A DNA stretch of 64,000 nucleotides from Desulforapulum autotrophicum (GTDB lineage Bacteria > Desulfobacterota > Desulfobacteria > Desulfobacterales > Desulfolunaceae), in NCBI GenBank assembly GCA_020723285.1, contig DYJE01000006.1, positions 1 through 64,000 on the forward strand, in the 5' to 3' direction. A model generated the notes under the pieces. The model had not been told where the DNA came from. It searched no databases and saw nothing but the letters and a program-made list of their open reading frames with translations. Below, in pieces: positions 29,518 to 52,001 of this stretch; position 1 is the stretch's first letter, and each line of letters opens with the position of its first letter. A program made the position numbers and the translations under genes.

Positions 29518-29592
29518 TGGCTGGGGCGGGAGGATTCGAACCTCCGAATGCAGGAATCAAAATCCTGTGTCTTACCGCTTGACGACGCCCCA
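29518..29592 (-). tRNA. tRNA-Gln (anticodon UUG)
   Basis: A 75-base cloverleaf on the minus strand: acceptor stem TGGGGCG pairs with CGCCCCA, the 3' GCCA including CCA is encoded, the anticodon stem CAGGA/TCCTG encloses loop TTTTGAT giving anticodon TTG, and the T arm reads GGAGGTTCGAATCCTCC. It lies between ispE and prs, in the same direction. Confidence 0.97.
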
Positions 29593-42371: not shown

Positions 42372-45300
42372 TTGGCCAGACGCTCATCGTTTACCGAAAA
42401 TGGAGATCCAGCCGGACAATCCGGAAAACTGTTCAAATTCATTGTTGAAAATTCGAATCAGGGCGTTCTTGTGGTTTTGGATGCCCAGCCGGTTTACATC
42501 AACAAACGGATTCTCGACTACACCGGCTATACCCAGGACGAACTGTTTTCAAAACGGCTCGAAGACCTTATCCACGCCGATGACAGAGATGCCATCGGCT
42601 CCACCTACATCCATCCGGCAAAAAAAACGTATGCCGAGCCCACGGTGTCCTTTCGGATCATCAAAAAGACCGGGGAAACACGGTGGGTCGAAATGCATAC
42701 GGAATGCGTCGCCTGGGGCAACGATCAGGCCACCTTGTGCTTTCTCACGGACATCACCCAGCATAAAAAATATGAAAAAGAGCTGTCCGGTTACCGAAAC
42801 AATCTGGAAGAAATCATTTTAAAACGGACAAACGAACTTCAGGAAACCAGCAAACAACTGTCCGCCGAAATATGCCGGCGTGAAAAAACAGAGAGCGTCC
42901 TCAACGAAAACAGCGACACATACCGCCGGATTCTGGACGATATTCAGGAAGGTTTTTTCGAAATCAGCCTTTCAGGCAAGCTTTTATTCTTCAATAAAGC
43001 CATGTGCGAACTTTCAGGCTATTCCGAAACGGAGCTTGAGGGAAGTCATTACAAAACGTACGCGGCAGAAAAAACGGCAAAAAAACTCTACAAAGTGTTC
43101 AACGCCATCTACACCACAGGGAAACCCGCCAAAATCAGTGATTTTGAAATGATCAAGAAAGACGGCACCACCGGTGTCTTTTCCATATCCGTTTCGCTGA
43201 TCCGTGACAAAGCCGGGAAACCCACAGGCTTCAGAGGCGTGGGCCGTGACGTCACCCAGTTCAAAAAAACGGAGCAGAAGCTGGAACAGGCCAGAGACGA
43301 ACTGGAAAAACGTGTGGAGGCCCGGACTGCAGAGCTGATCCAGACCAACTTCGAACTGATCAAGGCCAAGGAAATCGCCGACCAGTCGGCCCAGGCCAAA
43401 ACCGAATTCCTGGCCAACATGAGTCATGAAATAAGGACGCCTTTGAATGCCATTATCGGCATGTCCGAACTTTTGATGAACACGGAAAATCCTGTGAAAC
43501 AGAAGGAATACCTGAAAATCATCCGATCGTCCTCGTTGTCCCTTTTAGACCTGGTGAACGACATCCTCGATTTTTCCAAGGTGGATACGGGAAAAATGGA
43601 TTTCAAATATGTCCAGTTCAACCTCCAGGATGTCGTCGACAACCTCGCGGATCTTTTCCTTGCCAAAAACATGTCCAAGGAGCTGGAACTGGTCATCGAC
43701 ATCAAAGCCGATGTACCGGAACTCCTTATCGGGGACCCGGTCAGACTGCGCCAGATACTGGCGAACCTTGTGTCCAACGCCTTCAAGTTCACCGAAAAAG
43801 GCGAAATCTGCATCAGCGCCGAAGTCCATTCCATGGAAAACAACCGGACTGAACTCCTCTTCTGCATCAAGGACACCGGCATCGGCATTGATCCGGTTCT
43901 TTACAAAAAGGGGCGTCAGGATCTTTTCGAAGCCTTTGCACAGGCTGACGGGTCCACCACACGGAAATACGGCGGAACAGGCCTCGGGCTTGCCATCTGC
44001 CGCAAGATCGTCACCATGCTGGGGGGTAAAATCTGGGTTGAAAGCACACCGGGCAAAGGAAGCTCGTTCTTTTTCACAGCCATGTTCAGACACAACGGCA
44101 AATCCATGCGGGTAAAACAGGAAATTCCATCCAAAATCAAAGCCCACCGGGTTCTCGTGGTGGAAGACAACCCCTCCACACTGATGGTGATCAAACGATA
44201 CATGGAAGCCTTCGGTTTCAGGGCGGATCTCTCCACAACCGCCGAAGACGCCCTTGAACGATACGAAGAATCCCTGACCCGTGATCCCTATTGCCTCATC
44301 CTCATGGACATCCGTCTCCCCGGCATGGACGGCATCACCGCGGCCCATATCATCAAGAAAAAAAAGGAGGCCCCGTCTCCGCCCATCATCATGATCAGCG
44401 CCGTGGGTCACGAAAACGACCTCGACAGGGCCAAAGAAGCCGGGGTTGACCGGTTTCTCGTCAAACCCCTTCGGCAGTCCCACCTGTTCGACACCATCAT
44501 GGAAATCTACGGTTACGAACCCCAGCGTTCCTGGGATTATGTGCGTAAAGCCAACCGTTTCGAAACATTCCCCGACATCCGCATCCTCCTGGTGGAAGAC
44601 AATGCCGTCAATCAGATGGTGGTGACGGAGATGCTCCAGATTCCGGGAATCACCATCGAGCTTGCGGGCAACGGACTGGAAGCCCTGTCCCGTCTGGCTG
44701 AACATAAATACGACGCCGTGCTCATGGATGTTCAGATGCCTGAAATGGACGGCATCGAGACCACCCGTGAAATCCGGAACACCCTGGGGTTCAATGACAT
44801 CCCCATCATCGCCATGACGGCCCACGCCATGTACGGCGACCGGGAAAAGTGTCTGGCCGCCGGCATGAACGATTACATTCCCAAACCTGTTGACCGTGAA
44901 CGGCTGCTGTCCATTCTCAAACTCCACCTCCAGTCCCCTGCCCTTGAAGGTGACAACGAGGTTGCCCTGGCAAACACTTCACCCTCAGGCATGATCCTTG
45001 AGAGCGGCAGTTCCATGCTTCCGGGGATCGATCTGGACGAAGGGCTCAAACGATTCGGAGATTCCTGGACCCGTTACATGAAAATCCTGTTGAGCTTCAG
45101 CCACAGCTTCATCGATTTTTCTGAAACGGTGACCCGGCTGATCCAGAGCGGCCTGTTCGATGAAGCGGTAATCCAGGCCCATTCCCTCAAAGGGACTGCG
45201 GGCAACATCTCTGCCAACCGTCTCTATGCTGCAGCGGAAGCTTTTGAAAAAGCGCTGAGGGCCAGGATTCCCAACGATATCGGCAAATCATTCGCCCGTG

Positions 45301-45674
45301 TGGACGACGAACTCCGTCTGGTCCTTGAGTCCATTCACCGGGTGACTTTTTCAGAAACCGAAACGCCAGATGACGCCATCCCCGATTCAGACCTTGAGCC
45401 GGAAGTCTCGTTCAATGCCGACAAAGTGTTTGAAATCATTCCCGCATTGCTGGGAACGCTCAAGGATTTCGACCCCGTGGATTCCGAATTCAGACTGGAG
45501 GAACTCAAAGGCTGTTTTTTCGAAAATCAGCCGCACCACGAGTTCGACTCCCTGATCCAGGACCTTGAAACCCATGTCAAGAACTACCATTTTGACGAAG
45601 CCATCGAGGTCCTTGAAAATCTGGGCGGCCAGCTGAAAATCATGGAAGCCGGGATTACGGAACATACGCTGTAA
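42372..45674 (+). CDS. PAS-PAS-HisKA-HATPase-REC-REC-HPt hybrid kinase
   Basis: An 1100-residue cytoplasmic hybrid sensor. Two PAS domains (~20-135 and ~180-295) are joined by a coiled coil. The HisKA domain has His352 in [12 protein letters not shown]; the ATPase domain has Asn469, DTGIGI and GGTGLGLAI. Two receivers follow with Asp646 ([13 protein letters not shown]) and Asp786 ([13 protein letters not shown]), then an HPt domain with His937 in [10 protein letters not shown]. No membrane helix is evident. The start is a TTG with GGGGGAGG seven bases upstream. All phosphorelay residues are present. A DNA-binding output is absent; the REC/HD-GYP gene downstream is a possible partner. Confidence 0.92.
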
Positions 45675-47073: not shown

Positions 47074-47859
47074 ATGAACAACCACACCCTCAATGAACTT
47101 CTGGCCCAGGTGGCCCAGGGAACGCGAAGCGTCGAGGACGCGGCGACTCTTCTCAAACATATGTCCTCGGAAGACATTTCATTCGCAAATATCGACCACC
47201 ACCGGACCATGAGAAAAGGATTTCCCGAAGTGATTTTCGGGGAAGGCAAAACCTCCGCCCAGATCACCGGCATCATGGAACGGATGGCCGTTCAGGAACA
47301 TGTGGTCCTGGCGACACGGGTGGACGCAGCAAAAGCTGAGGACATTCTGAACACCTTTCCCGAAGCCTCGTACCATGCGGATGCGCGCATGGTGATCTGG
47401 AAGAAAAAAGACCCGGACATCACGGGCAACGGAACCATCCTTGTCCTTTCCGCCGGAACCTCCGACATCCCCGTAGCCCGTGAAGCCGCCCTCACAGCCC
47501 GGATGATGGGAAACCGTGTGGAAACCGTGTTCGACGTCGGCGTTGCCGGCATCCACCGGCTTTTCCGGCATAAAACCCTCATCGAAGAAGCCGCCGTTCT
47601 CATCGTGGTGGCGGGCATGGAAGGCGCGCTTCCCAGCGTGGTGGCGGGCATGGTCAGGAACCCCGTCATCGCCGTTCCCACCAGCGTGGGCTACGGCATC
47701 AGTCTGAAAGGCATGACCGCCCTCTTCGCCATGCTCAACTGTTGCAGCTCCAACGTGGCGGTGGTGAACATCGACAACGGTTTCGGCGCGGGCTACATGG
47801 CGTCATCCATCAATCATATTAAAGTAAAAGAAGGGGCGATCTCCGATTCCCCTTCCTGA
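47074..47859 (+). CDS. larB: Nickel-pincer cofactor carboxylase LarB
   Basis: A 261-residue protein of the LarB family, which carboxylates and hydrolyses nicotinic acid adenine dinucleotide in the first step of nickel-pincer nucleotide synthesis. The N-terminal part (FPEVIFGEGKT) and the AIR-carboxylase-like C-terminal part (VLSAGTSDIPVAREAA, GMEGALPSVVAGM, SVGYGIS) match, and Cys223-Cys224 provides the expected catalytic cysteine. LarA, LarC and LarE are not in the window. It starts 46 bases after the HD-GYP gene and may share its transcript. Confidence 0.9.
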   Translation: MNNHTLNELLAQVAQGTRSVEDAATLLKHMSSEDISFANIDHHRTMRKGFPEVIFGEGKTSAQITGIMERMAVQEHVVLATRVDAAKAEDILNTFPEASYHADARMVIWKKKDPDITGNGTILVLSAGTSDIPVAREAALTARMMGNRVETVFDVGVAGIHRLFRHKTLIEEAAVLIVVAGMEGALPSVVAGMVRNPVIAVPTSVGYGISLKGMTALFAMLNCCSSNVAVVNIDNGFGAGYMASSINHIKVKEGAISDSPS

Positions 47860-48049
47860 AAATTCAACTCTTCGACAACCGAAAAGAGAAGCAGGATGAA
47901 TTAAAGATGCGGTTTATCCATCTCATGCTTCATTTCATCCGAATAATCTGCTATGGATTCAAAATGTTTGATCATCCCCTATGGGAAACTCCATGAATCT
48001 GTAATTCTCATCAGAGAGTATTGTTTTGAACCGGAAGAGTGAAAAACGT

Positions 48050-50041
48050 ATGAGTTTGATTTTGCCAATAAATATCCAGAACCTTTTAACCTGCAATGGT
48101 GTAGAATCCCCACGCGTGGAATTCAAGGGAACCTGGGATGAGAAAACAACAGGTTATCAGGTTATTAAAACCATATGCGCCTTTGCCAACGATCTTCAAA
48201 ACCTGAACGGCGGATACATCGTGCTTGGTGTTGAAGAAGAAAACGGAAGAGCAAAATTCCCACTCAAGGGGCTGACGCCAGAGAAAATGGATCCCATCCA
48301 AAAATGGGTGCGAGGTCATTGCAACCAGATCGATCCGACATACCAGCCCGTGTTTTCACCTGAAGTCGTGAATGGTCAGCTTATTCTTGTCATCTGGGTC
48401 CCTGCTAGCGACACACGGCCCCACCGTGCGCCTGATCATGAAAAGGGGGATAGAAAATTTTTTGTCAGAATAGGTTCGGAGTCCGTTGATGCTGAAAAAA
48501 ACGGGGTTCTTGGACAGCTTCTTCAACTAACCGCAAGAGTTCCTTTTGATGATCGCCGAGCGCTTACCGCCCGAACCGAAGATTTGAGGGAAAACAAAGT
48601 CCGTGAATATCTGCGTAACGTAGGCAGCGGGCTGATTGATGAATCGAATACCAGGGAACTCTACAGAAAACTCCGAATCGCTGTCCCTGTAAACGGGCAT
48701 GATGTTCCGAAAAATATCGGTCTGCTGATGTTCAGCGATGATCCCGACAGGCAGGACGCACCATGGTTTCCCGGCGCACGGATCGAGGTGGTTCAATTCG
48801 CCGGATCAGAGTCAGGCAACGTGATCGAGGAAAAAATCTTTCGCGGCGGCATCCACGAGCAGGCCCAGGATGCGTTGCGATACATGGAAGGCATATCAAG
48901 CGCCCATATTGAAAAACAGTCCTCCTCGTTCCAGGTCAAAGGCTGGATAAGTTTCCCCATTCCAGCATTAAGGGAAGCTCTGGTCAACGCCATTTATCAC
49001 AGAAGCTACGAGGGTGTACCTGAACCCGTGAAGATCTATTTCTACCCGGACCGGATCGAAATCATCAGTTACCCAGGTCCTGTTCCAGGCATCCAGAAAA
49101 AACATCTGACTCAAGGGTCTGCGATCCCCCCGGTCCCTGCACGAAACAGACGAATCGGAGAGTTTCTGAAAGAACTTAAACTCGCCGAAGGACGAGGCAC
49201 CGGATTACCCAAATTATACAAAACCATGAGGGAAAACGGATCTCCGGACCCCCGGTTTGATTTTGATGATGATCGAACCTATTTCAGAGCCACCCTTCCG
49301 GCCCATCCTGAGTATGTGGCCATTTCAGCCATGCGGGATGCGGCCCATCTCAGAGCCATAGGCAACGAAGCGGACGCTTTCAAACGAATTGAAGAAACCT
49401 GGAATCGTATGCCCGCATCCCCCACGCTGACTGCTGAATTGATAAGACTTCTCGGCAATCAGGGCAAATCAGGTCATGCGGAAACCATCTTTAAACAATT
49501 CAGGGAGTCGACGTCCATTTCTTTCATACCCTTCGTAACCAACGCCCTGATCGATGTGCTTTTGGACGCCGGGCGACTCGAAGCAGCCGGCAAACTGATC
49601 GAAACACTGCCTCAGTATCTTGAAAAAAATGACGCCATCGAAGCGGCCATCCGGGCAAGGCGTCTTGGTCGCCAGGAACTTGCTCATCGTTATTTTGAAA
49701 GAGCGGGAGACACGGTATTGCATGATTCACGAGCCTTGCATGAATTCGCTCAGACAAAAATCAAACTGGCCAGAAAAATCACGGATCAGAATGTCAAAAA
49801 AATGGATCGTGAAACCCATCGCCGCCTGTTGCTTGAAGCCAAGGAACTGCTTGAACGTGTCGTTCAAACTGATTCGGACAGGATCAGAAAAGGATGGGCA
49901 TGGTTTAATCTTGCGACGGTCAAGAAGAATCTAAAATACCCTTCGCAGGAAATTACGGATGCTTACACACAGGCGGCGGTGCTTGTTCCGGAAGAGCAGC
50001 GTTTTGAAGACGGCCTGAATAAATGGGCTGAAAACCATTAA
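48050..50041 (+). CDS. AlbA_2 / GHKL-ATPase / TPR-like fusion protein
   Basis: A protein of 663 residues. The first ~140 form a Schlafen AlbA_2-type nucleic-acid-binding domain (ESPRVEFKGTW, then IKTICAFANDLQNLNGGYIVLGVE and RKFFVRIGSES). The middle has an HATPase_c_4-type domain with ALREALVNAIYHRSY (N box) and EGRGTGLPKL. The C-terminal ~240 residues are all helical and repeat-like, probably TPR. AlbA_2-HATPase proteins are widespread and often annotated as regulators; some related proteins occur in defence loci. The helical C-terminus is a less common addition. I choose the ATG at 48050 over a TTG at 48026. No partner gene is next to it. Confidence 0.75.
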   Translation: MSLILPINIQNLLTCNGVESPRVEFKGTWDEKTTGYQVIKTICAFANDLQNLNGGYIVLGVEEENGRAKFPLKGLTPEKMDPIQKWVRGHCNQIDPTYQPVFSPEVVNGQLILVIWVPASDTRPHRAPDHEKGDRKFFVRIGSESVDAEKNGVLGQLLQLTARVPFDDRRALTARTEDLRENKVREYLRNVGSGLIDESNTRELYRKLRIAVPVNGHDVPKNIGLLMFSDDPDRQDAPWFPGARIEVVQFAGSESGNVIEEKIFRGGIHEQAQDALRYMEGISSAHIEKQSSSFQVKGWISFPIPALREALVNAIYHRSYEGVPEPVKIYFYPDRIEIISYPGPVPGIQKKHLTQGSAIPPVPARNRRIGEFLKELKLAEGRGTGLPKLYKTMRENGSPDPRFDFDDDRTYFRATLPAHPEYVAISAMRDAAHLRAIGNEADAFKRIEETWNRMPASPTLTAELIRLLGNQGKSGHAETIFKQFRESTSISFIPFVTNALIDVLLDAGRLEAAGKLIETLPQYLEKNDAIEAAIRARRLGRQELAHRYFERAGDTVLHDSRALHEFAQTKIKLARKITDQNVKKMDRETHRRLLLEAKELLERVVQTDSDRIRKGWAWFNLATVKKNLKYPSQEITDAYTQAAVLVPEEQRFEDGLNKWAENH

Positions 50042-50077: not shown

Positions 50078-50104
50078 TTGACAATTCCGCCATCAAAGTA
50101 TAAA
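50078..50104 (+). promoter_or_regulatory. Promoter of the ilv leader
   Basis: A consensus -35 TTGACA (50078-50083) is followed by TATAAA at 50099-50104 after 15 bases, or by TAAAAG after 17. A transcript from here would begin about 25-30 bases before the leader-peptide start. Confidence 0.65.
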
Positions 50105-50138
50105 AGAGACAAATTACAATAAATTCAAGGTATTTTAA

Positions 50139-50231
50139 ATGAACCGTTACAAAGCCATTCTAAGCATCGTCGTCGTCCTGATCAGCCTGACAGGCATTGT
50201 CCCTGTCCTGGGCGTCATCCGGGTCGGATGA
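50139..50231 (+). CDS. ilv operon leader peptide
   Basis: A 30-codon open frame with AAGG eight bases upstream of its ATG. Sixteen residues are branched-chain: 5 Ile, 7 Val and 4 Leu; codons 7-17 include nine of them, starting ILSIVVVLISL. It lies between a promoter candidate and the ilvD terminator and ends 39 bases before that terminator's stem. By analogy with enterobacterial IlvL/IlvG leaders, ribosome speed through these codons reports the supply of charged tRNA-Ile, -Val and -Leu. The peptide itself has no expected function. Confidence 0.88.
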   Translation: MNRYKAILSIVVVLISLTGIVPVLGVIRVG

Positions 50232-50310
50232 GGTAGATAATGGCTTGACATAACCCAATCATTTCAACATAAAAAGCCGTTATCAGCCGAAAACTGATAA
50301 CGGCTTTTTT
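50152..50310 (+). promoter_or_regulatory. Branched-chain amino acid attenuator
   Basis: Four segments fit a classical attenuator. Segment 1 (50152-50159, AAGCCATT, leader codons 5-7) pairs with segment 2 (50239-50246, AATGGCTT). Segment 2, extended (50236-50246, GATAATGGCTT), pairs with segment 3 (50274-50284, AAGCCGTTATC; one G-U). Segment 3 is the 5' arm of the terminator formed with segment 4 (50294-50310). A ribosome stalled in the Ile/Val/Leu codons covers segment 1 and lets 2:3 form, so transcription goes on; a ribosome at the stop codon covers segment 2 and lets 3:4 form. The pairings are seen in the sequence; the mechanism is inference from known attenuators. Confidence 0.85.
50271..50310 (+). 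terminator. Intrinsic terminator before ilvD
   Basis: A 16-bp perfect stem AAAAAGCCGTTATCAG / CTGATAACGGCTTTTT with a seven-base loop, followed by further T residues. It stands between the leader peptide and the ilvD ribosome-binding site. Confidence 0.93.
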
Positions 50311-50333
50311 AATTTTTAATGGAGAAAGCAAAC

Positions 50334-52001
50334 ATGAAAAGTCAGCAAGTGAAAAAAGGAATCGAAAGAGCCCCCCACCGTTCGCTGTTCAAAGCCATGG
50401 GCTACACCGACACCGAAATCGAACGGCCGCTCATCGGAATCGCCAATTCCGCCAACACCATCATTCCCGGCCATGTCCATCTGAACAAGCTTGTTGAAGC
50501 GGTCAAAGCCGGAATATACATGGCGGGGGGAACCCCCATCGAGTTCGGCATCATCGGCGTCTGCGACGGTATCGCCATGAACCACACGGGCATGAGCTAC
50601 TCCCTGGGCAGCCGGGAGCTGATCGCCGACTGCGTGGAAGTGGTGGCCACCGGCCATGCCCTTGACGCCCTGGTGATGATTCCCAACTGCGACAAGATCG
50701 TGCCCGGCATGCTCATGGCCGCGGCGAGACTCGATCTGCCCACGATTTTCGTCAGCGGCGGCCCCATGCTGGCCGGGCGGCATCCCAAGAACCACAATAA
50801 AAAGGTGGATCTGATCACCGTGTTCGAAAGCGTGGGAGCTGTCCTTTCAAACAAAATGACCGAAGAGGAACTTCACTCCATCGAAGACGCGGCATGCCCC
50901 ACCTGCGGATCCTGCTCGGGCATGTTCACGGCCAATTCCATGAACTGCCTGACCGAAGCCATCGGCATGGGACTTCCCGGCAACGGCACCATTCCGGCCG
51001 TTATGGCGGCAAGGGAACGTCTGGCCAAACAGGCGGGGATGAAAATCATGGACCTTCTGAAAAACGACATCCGTCCCTCAAACATCATGACGGAAAAATC
51101 GTTCAGAAACGCTCTGGCCGTGGACATGGCCCTGGGATGCTCCACCAACACCGTGCTTCACCTGAAAGCCATCGCCCATGAGGCGGGAGTCGACATCAAT
51201 CTTAATCTGATCAACGAAATCAGCAAGATCGTCCCCCACCTCTGCTCCCTTTCCCCCGGCGGGAAAGACCATATCGAGGACCTGAACGCGGCGGGAGGTA
51301 TCCAGTCCGTTCTCAAAGTCCTTTCAGACCAGGGGCTGATCAACGGCGAATGCATCACCGTCACCGGTAAAACCGTAAGGGAAAACACGGCGGCCTGCAC
51401 GGTTCTGAACGAAGACGTGATCCGGCCGTTCCATTCGCCGTATCATAAGGAAGGCGGCCTGGCCGTTCTTTTCGGCAACCTCGCCCCCGACGGATGTGTG
51501 GTCAAACAGTCCGCCGTATTGGACAGCATGCTTCGCCACAAAGGCCCGGCACGGGTGTTCAACTCCGAAGAGGAAGCCAGCAAGGTCATCATGGGCGGCG
51601 GTATCCGAAAAGGCGACGTCATCGTCATCCGTTACGAAGGTCCCATGGGTGGTCCCGGCATGCGTGAAATGCTGACCCCCACCTCGGCCATCGCGGGCAT
51701 GAAGCTGGACGATTCCGTGGCGCTCCTCACCGACGGACGTTTCTCGGGCGGTACCAAAGGCGCGTCCATCGGCCATATTTCGCCGGAAGCGGCCCACGGC
51801 GGCCCCATCGCCATCGTCAAGGAAGGGGACATCATCGCCATCGACATCCCGTCCAAAACCATCACACTGGAGGTTTCGGATGAAGAAATTCAAAACAGAA
51901 TGAAAGACTGGAAAAAACCCGCTCCGAAAATCACCCGAGGCTATATGGCGCGTTATGCAAAGCTGGTGTCATCGGCCAGTGAGGGAGCCATCGTTAAATA
52001 G
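50334..52001 (+). CDS. ilvD: Dihydroxy-acid dehydratase
   Basis: A 555-residue Fe-S dehydratase that makes 2-keto acids from dihydroxy acids in Ile and Val synthesis. Cluster ligands are seen in [12 protein letters not shown] and [19 protein letters not shown]; the C-terminal [19 protein letters not shown] motif is also present. I prefer the ATG at 50334, with GGAG nine bases upstream, over the ATG at 50319. It is the first structural gene after the attenuator. Confidence 0.96.

What the first reader, a model, noticed from the sequence alone, without database searches (positions are those of the whole stretch)
50139..50310. Complete ilv leader peptide and attenuator
The sequence shows a 30-codon leader with 16 Ile/Val/Leu codons, a promoter candidate before it, and a strong terminator after it. 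The segments pair in three mutually exclusive ways (50152-50159 with 50239-50246; 50236-50246 with 50274-50284; 50274-50286 with 50294-50310). The stop codon lies 5 bases before segment 2, so a terminating ribosome would mask it. This is the design of classical attenuators, here for ilvD-ilvB-ilvH-cimA-leuA in a likely Desulfobacterota member. I am not aware of a description in this group.
Basis: partly seen in the sequence, partly recalled or inferred. Interest (0 to 1): 0.8.

Follow-up and report, generated by a model that had tools for sequence, protein, structure and literature searches.

The report
Branched-chain amino acid attenuator in Desulfobacterota
In front of this bacterium's genes for making isoleucine, valine and leucine lies what looks like a classical RNA switch, an 'attenuator' in which a ribosome reading a tiny isoleucine/valine/leucine-rich peptide senses shortage, and a matching element was found in most related genomes examined.

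Summary
A 30-codon leader (50139-50231, 16 Ile/Leu/Val codons), three mutually exclusive helices and a strong terminator (50271-50309) precede ilvD-ilvB-ilvH-cimA-leuA. Of 50 ilvD upstream regions read from the same order, 41 have an I/L/V-rich leader plus terminator. On 40 aligned leaders all three helices are largely kept, with some compensatory changes in each, thinnest for 2:3. A covariance model matches 254 of 291 genomes of the order, 198 of them among 233 that supplied no training sequence. A gene-blind DNA pattern scan returned 74 stretches; in 72 of 72 testable, ilvD, ilvB, cimA or leuA starts within 500 nt. Outside the order 35 genomes match; the seven best, the only ones read, precede cimA or leuA. 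A promoter-like motif precedes 38 of 41 leaders. No Rfam family reaches its threshold here. This is a classical ribosome-mediated attenuator, apparently an undescribed family, not a new mechanism. Starvation-dependent read-through is untested.

The parts
50078..50106 (+). promoter candidate: TTGACA (50078-50083), 17-bp spacer, TAAAAG (50101-50106)
   Evidence: TTGAC[AT]-N17-TA occurs within 120 nt upstream of 38 of 41 leaders, 0.22 of 41 expected from base shuffles; not reported by the consensus scan
50139..50231 (+). leader peptide ORF, 30 codons, 16 Ile/Leu/Val, stop TGA at 50229-50231
   Evidence: I/L/V-rich leaders of 25-35 aa with terminator in 41 of 50 ilvD upstream regions
50152..50159 (+). 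segment 1 (AAGCCATT, within leader codons 5-7), pairs with 50239-50246
   Evidence: aligned helix in 40 sequences 82.2% paired; not significant in the window alone
50236..50246 (+). segment 2 (GATAATGGCTT), four bases after the leader stop; pairs with segment 1 or segment 3
   Evidence: strongly conserved in the alignment
50271..50286 (+). segment 3 (5' arm of terminator); 50274-50284 pairs with segment 2 as antiterminator
   Evidence: 2:3 helix 89.4% paired in 40 sequences; predicted duplex -20.0 kcal/mol
50294..50309 (+). segment 4 (3' arm of terminator), running into the T tract
   Evidence: 3:4 helix 92.3% paired, one column pair U-A 18, A-U 12, G-C 10; hairpin -22.0 kcal/mol
50334..52001 (+). 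ilvD, dihydroxy-acid dehydratase
   Evidence: TIGR00110 799 bits
52082..53776 (+). ilvB, acetolactate synthase large subunit
   Evidence: TIGR00118 835.8 bits
53878..54363 (+). ilvH, acetolactate synthase small subunit
   Evidence: TIGR00119 213.1 bits
54444..56036 (+). cimA, citramalate synthase
   Evidence: TIGR00977 707.3 bits
56223..57761 (+). leuA, 2-isopropylmalate synthase
   Evidence: TIGR00973 708.9 bits

Best explanation
It is a classical ribosome-mediated transcription attenuator that senses charged Ile/Leu/Val tRNA for the ilvD-ilvB-ilvH-cimA-leuA operon. Transcription starts about 25 nt before the leader ATG (inferred from the promoter). With enough branched-chain amino acids, the ribosome reaches the stop codon beside segment 2 and covers it, segments 3 and 4 pair, and transcription ends before ilvD. 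When the amino acids are short, the ribosome stalls at early Ile/Leu/Val codons over segment 1, which frees segment 2 to pair with segment 3; the terminator cannot form and the operon is transcribed. Without translation, 1:2 forms and termination is the default. Shown here: anatomy, conservation, covariation, promoter motif and gene context. Inferred: stalling, termination and read-through.
For: 41 of 50 ilvD upstream regions read carry a 25-35 aa leader (50% I/L/V overall) plus terminator. The three alternative helices are 92.3%, 89.4% and 82.2% paired against at most 57%, 62% and 54% when slid, and their covariation scores (0.167, 0.112, 0.203) exceed all 500 shuffles and every slid version. 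The model matches 198 of 233 genomes of the order that gave no training sequence. A gene-blind pattern scan gives 74 stretches; 72 of 72 with enough sequence have ilvD (51), ilvB (13), cimA (4) or leuA (4) starting within 500 nt, 69 of them within 200 nt. An I/L/V-rich ORF ends at the motif in 72 of 74 by an automatic rule that picks the richest ORF; in the other two one can be read by eye, cut by the locus edge or with a TTG start. Promoter motif in 38 of 41. In leaders Leu codon CTG is rare (4% against 41% in the first codons of ilvD) and CTA enriched (16% against 3%); PMC1183508 (passages) argues that CUA is the most suitable E. coli leu control codon. In its own genome the site is the only strong match.
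Against: No expression data. In the window the 1:2 helix is only 8 bp and no better than synonymous recoding of the leader (p = 0.33); only 6 of 40 sequences reach p < 0.05 singly, though 38 of 40 exceed their null mean. Some covariation measures are not special: for 1:2 the number of pairs with double changes (8) is hardly above slid versions (up to 7); further pair types for 3:4 and 2:3 do not exceed shuffles (322 and 247 of 500 as high); 22 of the 28 double-change cells of 3:4 fall in one pair, and 5 of the 9 of 2:3 fall in an end pair that 26 of 40 sequences do not form. The sequences are related, so shuffles overstate covariation. 9 of 50 ilvD upstream regions lack the full element. The commonest Leu codons in leaders are CTT (39%) and CTC (31%), not CTA, and pairing needs may explain part of the bias; the window itself uses CTA once and CTG three times. 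Codon-position statistics for leader coding are weak (132/127/152 differences at positions 1/2/3; 63 synonymous, 222 non-synonymous codons over 19 pairs).
Confidence: 0.93

Rival explanations
1. The hairpin is only the terminator of the upstream gene (48026-50041) and the short ORF is chance.
For: A strong terminator lies 230 nt after that gene's stop.
Against: Leader and terminator recur in 41 of 50 ilvD upstream regions, and the segment 2-3-4 pattern precedes BCAA genes in 72 of 72 testable hits; a conserved promoter motif lies between upstream gene and leader.
Confidence: 0.02
2. The leader is a uORF acting by another route (translational coupling or Rho), with the terminator constitutive.
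For: Codon replacement in the Streptomyces coelicolor ilvB leader is reported to have had no effect (PMC1262725, passages), so I/L/V-rich leaders do not always mean classical attenuation.
Against: Here segment 2 can pair with segment 1 or segment 3 and all three helices are largely kept across 40 sequences; an intrinsic terminator is present.
Confidence: 0.04
3. A riboswitch, T-box or protein-binding leader controls the operon, and the ORF is incidental.
For: Parts of the segment cores (CCGTTATCAG, TGATAATGG) are nearly invariant, more than pairing of two strands alone demands.
Against: No Rfam family reaches its gathering score at the site; of the six sub-threshold matches the best by score is His_leader, 25.1 bits against 49. 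The high I/L/V content would need another cause. Tight conservation is expected where each segment has several partners (inference).
Confidence: 0.01

Closest known systems
Enterobacterial ilvGMEDA, ilvBN and leu attenuators (ribosome-mediated)
   Same: I/L/V-rich leader, alternative antiterminator and terminator, stop codon near segment 2, cognate operon (their anatomy is recalled).
   Different: No sequence relation tested or claimed. Here the first gene is ilvD (elsewhere ilvB, cimA or leuA), the operon includes cimA, and segment cores are nearly invariant across an order. That the enterobacterial operons are attenuated is stated in PMC1183508 (passage).
Actinobacterial ilvB leaders (Corynebacterium, Mycobacterium, Streptomyces), including the Corynebacterium ilvB-II uORF motif
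   Same: Short I/L/V-rich ORF with a terminator before a BCAA gene.
   Different: There the ORF is described as overlapping the terminator hairpin, and codon replacement in Streptomyces had no effect (PMC1262725, passages). The ilvB motif is said to be found only in Corynebacterium (PMC11109978, passages).
ilvD motif WRC-18-2 (Veillonella) and ilvB motif WRC-14-1 (Leptospira)
   Same: Conserved RNA structure upstream of ilvD or ilvB.
   Different: Presented as weak riboswitch candidates found exclusively in those genera (PMC8632094, passages).
Rfam His_leader (RF00514)
   Same: An attenuator leader; weak match over 50161-50312.
   Different: 25.1 bits against a gathering score of 49; the leader holds no His codon.

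Membership tests
Classical ribosome-mediated transcription attenuator | Leader ORF with many codons for the amino acids made by the operon | tested here: met
   16 of 30 I/L/V; 50% I/L/V over 41 leaders, range 36-63%
Classical ribosome-mediated transcription attenuator | Intrinsic terminator between leader and first gene | tested here: met
   16-bp stem plus T tract; 3:4 helix 92.3% paired in 40 sequences
Classical ribosome-mediated transcription attenuator | Antiterminator 2:3 that excludes the terminator | tested here: met
   89.4% of cells paired, slid controls 14-62%; covariation thin (9 double-change cells, 5 of them in a mostly unformed end pair)
Classical ribosome-mediated transcription attenuator | Protector helix 1:2 that excludes 2:3 | tested here: met
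   82.2% paired, slid controls 24-54%; 20 double-change cells against at most 15 slid. Not significant in the window alone (p = 0.33) nor in 34 of 40 sequences singly
Classical ribosome-mediated transcription attenuator | Leader stop placed so that a terminating ribosome covers segment 2 | tested here: met
   Stop four bases before segment 2 in the window; overlapping it in 31 of 41 loci, ending 15-25 nt past its start in 9 of 41
Classical ribosome-mediated transcription attenuator | Read-through rises on limitation of the cognate amino acid and depends on leader translation | not testable with these tools
   No expression data at hand
Rfam families (His_leader, T-box, riboswitches) | Match at or above the family's gathering score | tested here: not met
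   Only a tRNA at 29521-29592 reaches gathering in the window; His_leader 25.1 against 49 bits

The most novel reading that the evidence does not exclude
One ancestral attenuator with a nearly frozen four-segment core has been used across Desulfobacterota for at least four entry genes of branched-chain amino acid synthesis (ilvD, ilvB, cimA, leuA). The leader's control codons were retuned each time: richer in Ile before ilvD and ilvB, richer in Leu before cimA and leuA. It would be a module copied or kept while operons were rearranged rather than invented anew at each operon. A hairpin inside the leader would act as a pause signal that synchronises ribosome and polymerase.
Probability: 0.45. 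Interest if true: 0.6.

Novelty: new member of a known kind. Interest (0 to 1): 0.45.

Why it matters
It gives a comparatively supported example of classical attenuation, with three mutually exclusive helices each largely kept, as a widespread regulator candidate of branched-chain amino acid synthesis in a large, mostly uncultured group. It would justify a new RNA family entry and annotation of the leader ORF, and would let operon regulation be read from genomes alone. The natural variants before four different genes make control-codon choice and operon rearrangement directly testable.

Tried and rejected
Rejected: chance terminator of the upstream gene (promoter motif and gene context conserved); an Rfam family. 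The own-genome model match at G000:C70:212050 (E 0.29) is a terminator behind a tRNA-like stretch, judged by eye, not a second copy. Minus-strand model matches at the same places are read as echoes of the palindromic stem. RNAalifold on the whole alignment recovered only the terminator helix, as expected when helices compete; the others were tested by naming them, so they were not predicted blindly. In the 400 nt before the own-genome ilvC match and the best leuC match (the latter below its family's cut-off) no leader with a terminator was seen.

Led nowhere: ten literature searches (the one on an author name) showed no title or abstract start describing this in the group. Several listings were capped (25 of 31, 20 of 21, 12 of 40, 10 of 24 and 12 of 23 papers listed), and only open-access text was searched. 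Vitreschak 2004 and Lopatovskaya 2010 were not held; I cannot exclude that they include deltaproteobacterial ilv or leu leaders. PMC4833913 (passages) counts leader genes in delta-proteobacteria and speaks of a high incidence of attenuation in Proteobacteria, without naming ilv in its main text.

Dropped before counts: L032 (degenerate leader) and L004 (near duplicate of L006) were left out of the 40-row alignment, as were L018 (divergent stem) and seven loci without an element (L019, L036, L044, L047-L050). Of 58 genomes, 50 upstream regions were read; 2 genomes had no IlvD match and 6 were not fetched. Loci matched by the model were not read for gene context except ten (L053 and nine others) and those already read as ilvD loci.

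Full report
What is there. The leader ORF runs 50139-50231 and encodes MNRYKAILSIVVVLISLTGIVPVLGVIRVG, 16 of 30 residues I/L/V. Segment 1 (50152-50159) can pair with 50239-50246, segment 2 (50236-50246) with 50274-50284, and segment 3 (50271-50286) with segment 4 (50294-50309), the last being a 16-bp terminator running into T residues. Predicted energies are -20.0 kcal/mol for the 2:3 duplex and -22.0 for the terminator hairpin. The whole region folds at -63.3 kcal/mol against a shuffle mean of -44.1 (z -5.1, 0 of 200), an excess to which the terminator contributes much. Downstream are ilvD, ilvB, ilvH, cimA and leuA.

Conservation at ilvD. A search of 58 genomes of the order gave IlvD in 56. 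I read the upstream DNA of 50 of these loci, one per genome: 30 came with the search and 20 were fetched. In 41 of 50 there is an I/L/V-rich leader of 25-35 codons followed by a terminator, usually with a CCGTTATCAGCC-type arm. One more (L018) has a leader and a divergent stem that my terminator rule missed, one (L032) keeps the terminator with a degenerate leader, and seven have none. Four of the seven sit before distant IlvD proteins (about 57-63% identity over the part compared). Six of the seven genomes have a model match all the same (G012, G023, G024, G036, G047, G057; G014 has none), on another contig in the four whose place is listed (G012, G023, G024, G057); I did not read what follows those.

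Covariation. On 40 aligned leaders: terminator helix 3:4, 92.3% of cells paired, 5 of 16 pairs with double changes, the clearest being U-A 18, A-U 12, G-C 10, which holds 22 of the 28 double-change cells. Antiterminator 2:3, 89.4% paired against 88.5% in shuffles, 4 of 13 pairs and 9 cells with double changes, 5 of these in an end pair that 26 of 40 sequences do not form. Protector 1:2, 82.2% paired against 78.7% in shuffles, 8 of 13 pairs and 20 cells with double changes. Covariation scores (0.167, 0.112, 0.203) exceed all 500 shuffles and all slid versions. Sliding one side by 1-3 columns drops pairing to 20-57%, 14-62% and 24-54%. Not every measure is special: slid versions of 1:2 still have up to 7 pairs with a double change, and further pair types for 3:4 and 2:3 do not exceed shuffles. 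Shuffles keep composition but not relatedness, so these numbers are not probabilities. Against synonymous recoding of each leader, the best 1:2 pairing exceeds the null mean in 38 of 40 sequences, but singly reaches p < 0.05 in only 6; the window gives p = 0.33 (the codon pool was drawn from the same leaders, which makes the null severe). The case for 1:2 therefore rests on the set. A further hairpin inside the leader, just 5' of segment 2, recurs: 70.7% paired, covariation 0.299 against 0.240 shuffled, but the number of pairs with double changes (7) equals the shuffles. It is not evident in that form in the window.

Why the cores hardly change. Segments 1 and 3 both pair with 2, and 3 also with 4, so a change in one needs matching changes in up to three others (inference). 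Conservation of multiply interacting attenuator segments over long distances is noted in PMC1262725 (passages).

Distribution. A covariance model of segment 2 to terminator (R1) matches 254 of 291 genomes of the order and 127 of 138 genera at E <= 0.01. The 40 training sequences come from genomes G000-G057, of which 56 of 58 match; among the other 233 genomes 198 match. E-values from the short calibration are rough and gene context of these matches was not read. In a draw of 395 genomes of the phylum 50 match: 15 in the order and 35 outside it. The seven best outside the order were read: five precede cimA and two leuA, all seven with I/L/V-rich leaders; the weaker 28 were not read. A DNA pattern for segments 2-3-4, holding no gene information, matched 74 stretches in the one-genome-per-species collection. 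I searched downstream for five proteins only (IlvD, IlvB, IlvH, CimA, LeuA). Two stretches end before a gene could be seen; in the other 72 the nearest of the five is ilvD 51, ilvB 13, leuA 4, cimA 4, starting within 500 nt, 69 of 72 within 200 nt. By record title, counted by eye, 54 of 74 are Desulfobacterales-type names, 18 'Deltaproteobacteria bacterium', 1 'Proteobacteria bacterium' and 1 'Desulfuromonadales'.

Promoter and codons. TTGAC[AT]-N17-TA lies within 120 nt upstream of 38 of 41 leaders, against 0.22 of 41 in base shuffles; in 37 of the 38 it starts 50-84 nt before the leader start, in L043 115 nt before. The stricter consensus scan reports none in the window. In leaders, Leu codons are CTT 39%, CTC 31%, CTA 16%, TTA 6%, CTG 4%, TTG 4%; in the first codons of ilvD CTG is 41% and CTA 3%. 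Ile prefers ATT (67% against 39%). PMC1183508 (passages) argues that CUA is the most suitable E. coli leu control codon and cites CUG replacements in the S. typhimurium leu leader that reduced sensitivity. Part of the bias here may come from pairing needs, since segment 1 and the inner hairpin lie in the leader. The window leader uses CTA once and CTG three times, so it is not typical. Leaders before leuA and cimA are richer in Leu (22% and 24%) and poorer in Ile (13% and 17%) than those before ilvD and ilvB (Leu 17% and 18%, Ile 20% and 23%), from only 4, 3, 50 and 13 leaders.

Mechanism. Anatomy, conservation, covariation, promoter motif and gene context are shown; ribosome stalling, termination and read-through are inferred. 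In 31 of 41 loci the stop codon overlaps segment 2, in the window it ends four bases before it, and in 9 of 41 it ends 15-25 nt past the start of segment 2. In the first two cases a terminating ribosome would cover segment 2 (a reach of up to 12 nt past the stop is given in PMC4833913, passage); in the third it would have just read through it.

Novelty. No Rfam family reaches its gathering score here. Ten literature searches of open-access text, one of them on an author name and several with capped listings, showed no description in this group. Passages of five papers were seen by term search; a sixth, PMC2965389, held none of the terms in its main text. Two comparative studies likely to be relevant were not held. 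The kind is long known; the family and its reach appear new, subject to those two papers.

Noticed in passing
own genome G000:C22, upstream of a trpE-like match at 43987-45357 (-), locus L162: A different attenuator candidate: leader MNGNAKNMTSDSIRRWWWRGCIGPADTLISPQG with three Trp codons in a row and a terminator starting 161 nt before the match; the match scores 511.2 bits, just under the family's cut-off of 517.7.
   Followed up: partly
loci L071, L073, L077, L078 (outside the order): cimA-type leaders share a pattern (I/V-rich, then a Leu-rich run such as SLLLLLLVV, ending near PGLIM or TGLMM); L073 shows an inner hairpin CAACAGGG / CCCTGTTG.
   Followed up: partly
locus L032 (G045): Leader apparently decayed to short ORFs while the terminator stem is kept; a TTGACA sequence lies between them, suggesting loss of attenuation and a new start.
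   Followed up: no
locus L018 (G050): Divergent version in which segment 2 (GGGCAGGTAGCGG) and the stem (CCGTTACTTGCC) appear by eye to have changed together.
   Followed up: no
window 48026-50041 (+): Upstream gene has a Schlafen AlbA_2 domain, a RecG-C-like ATPase domain and weak TPR matches.
   Followed up: no
window 47074-47859 (+): larB, nickel pincer cofactor biosynthesis.
   Followed up: no
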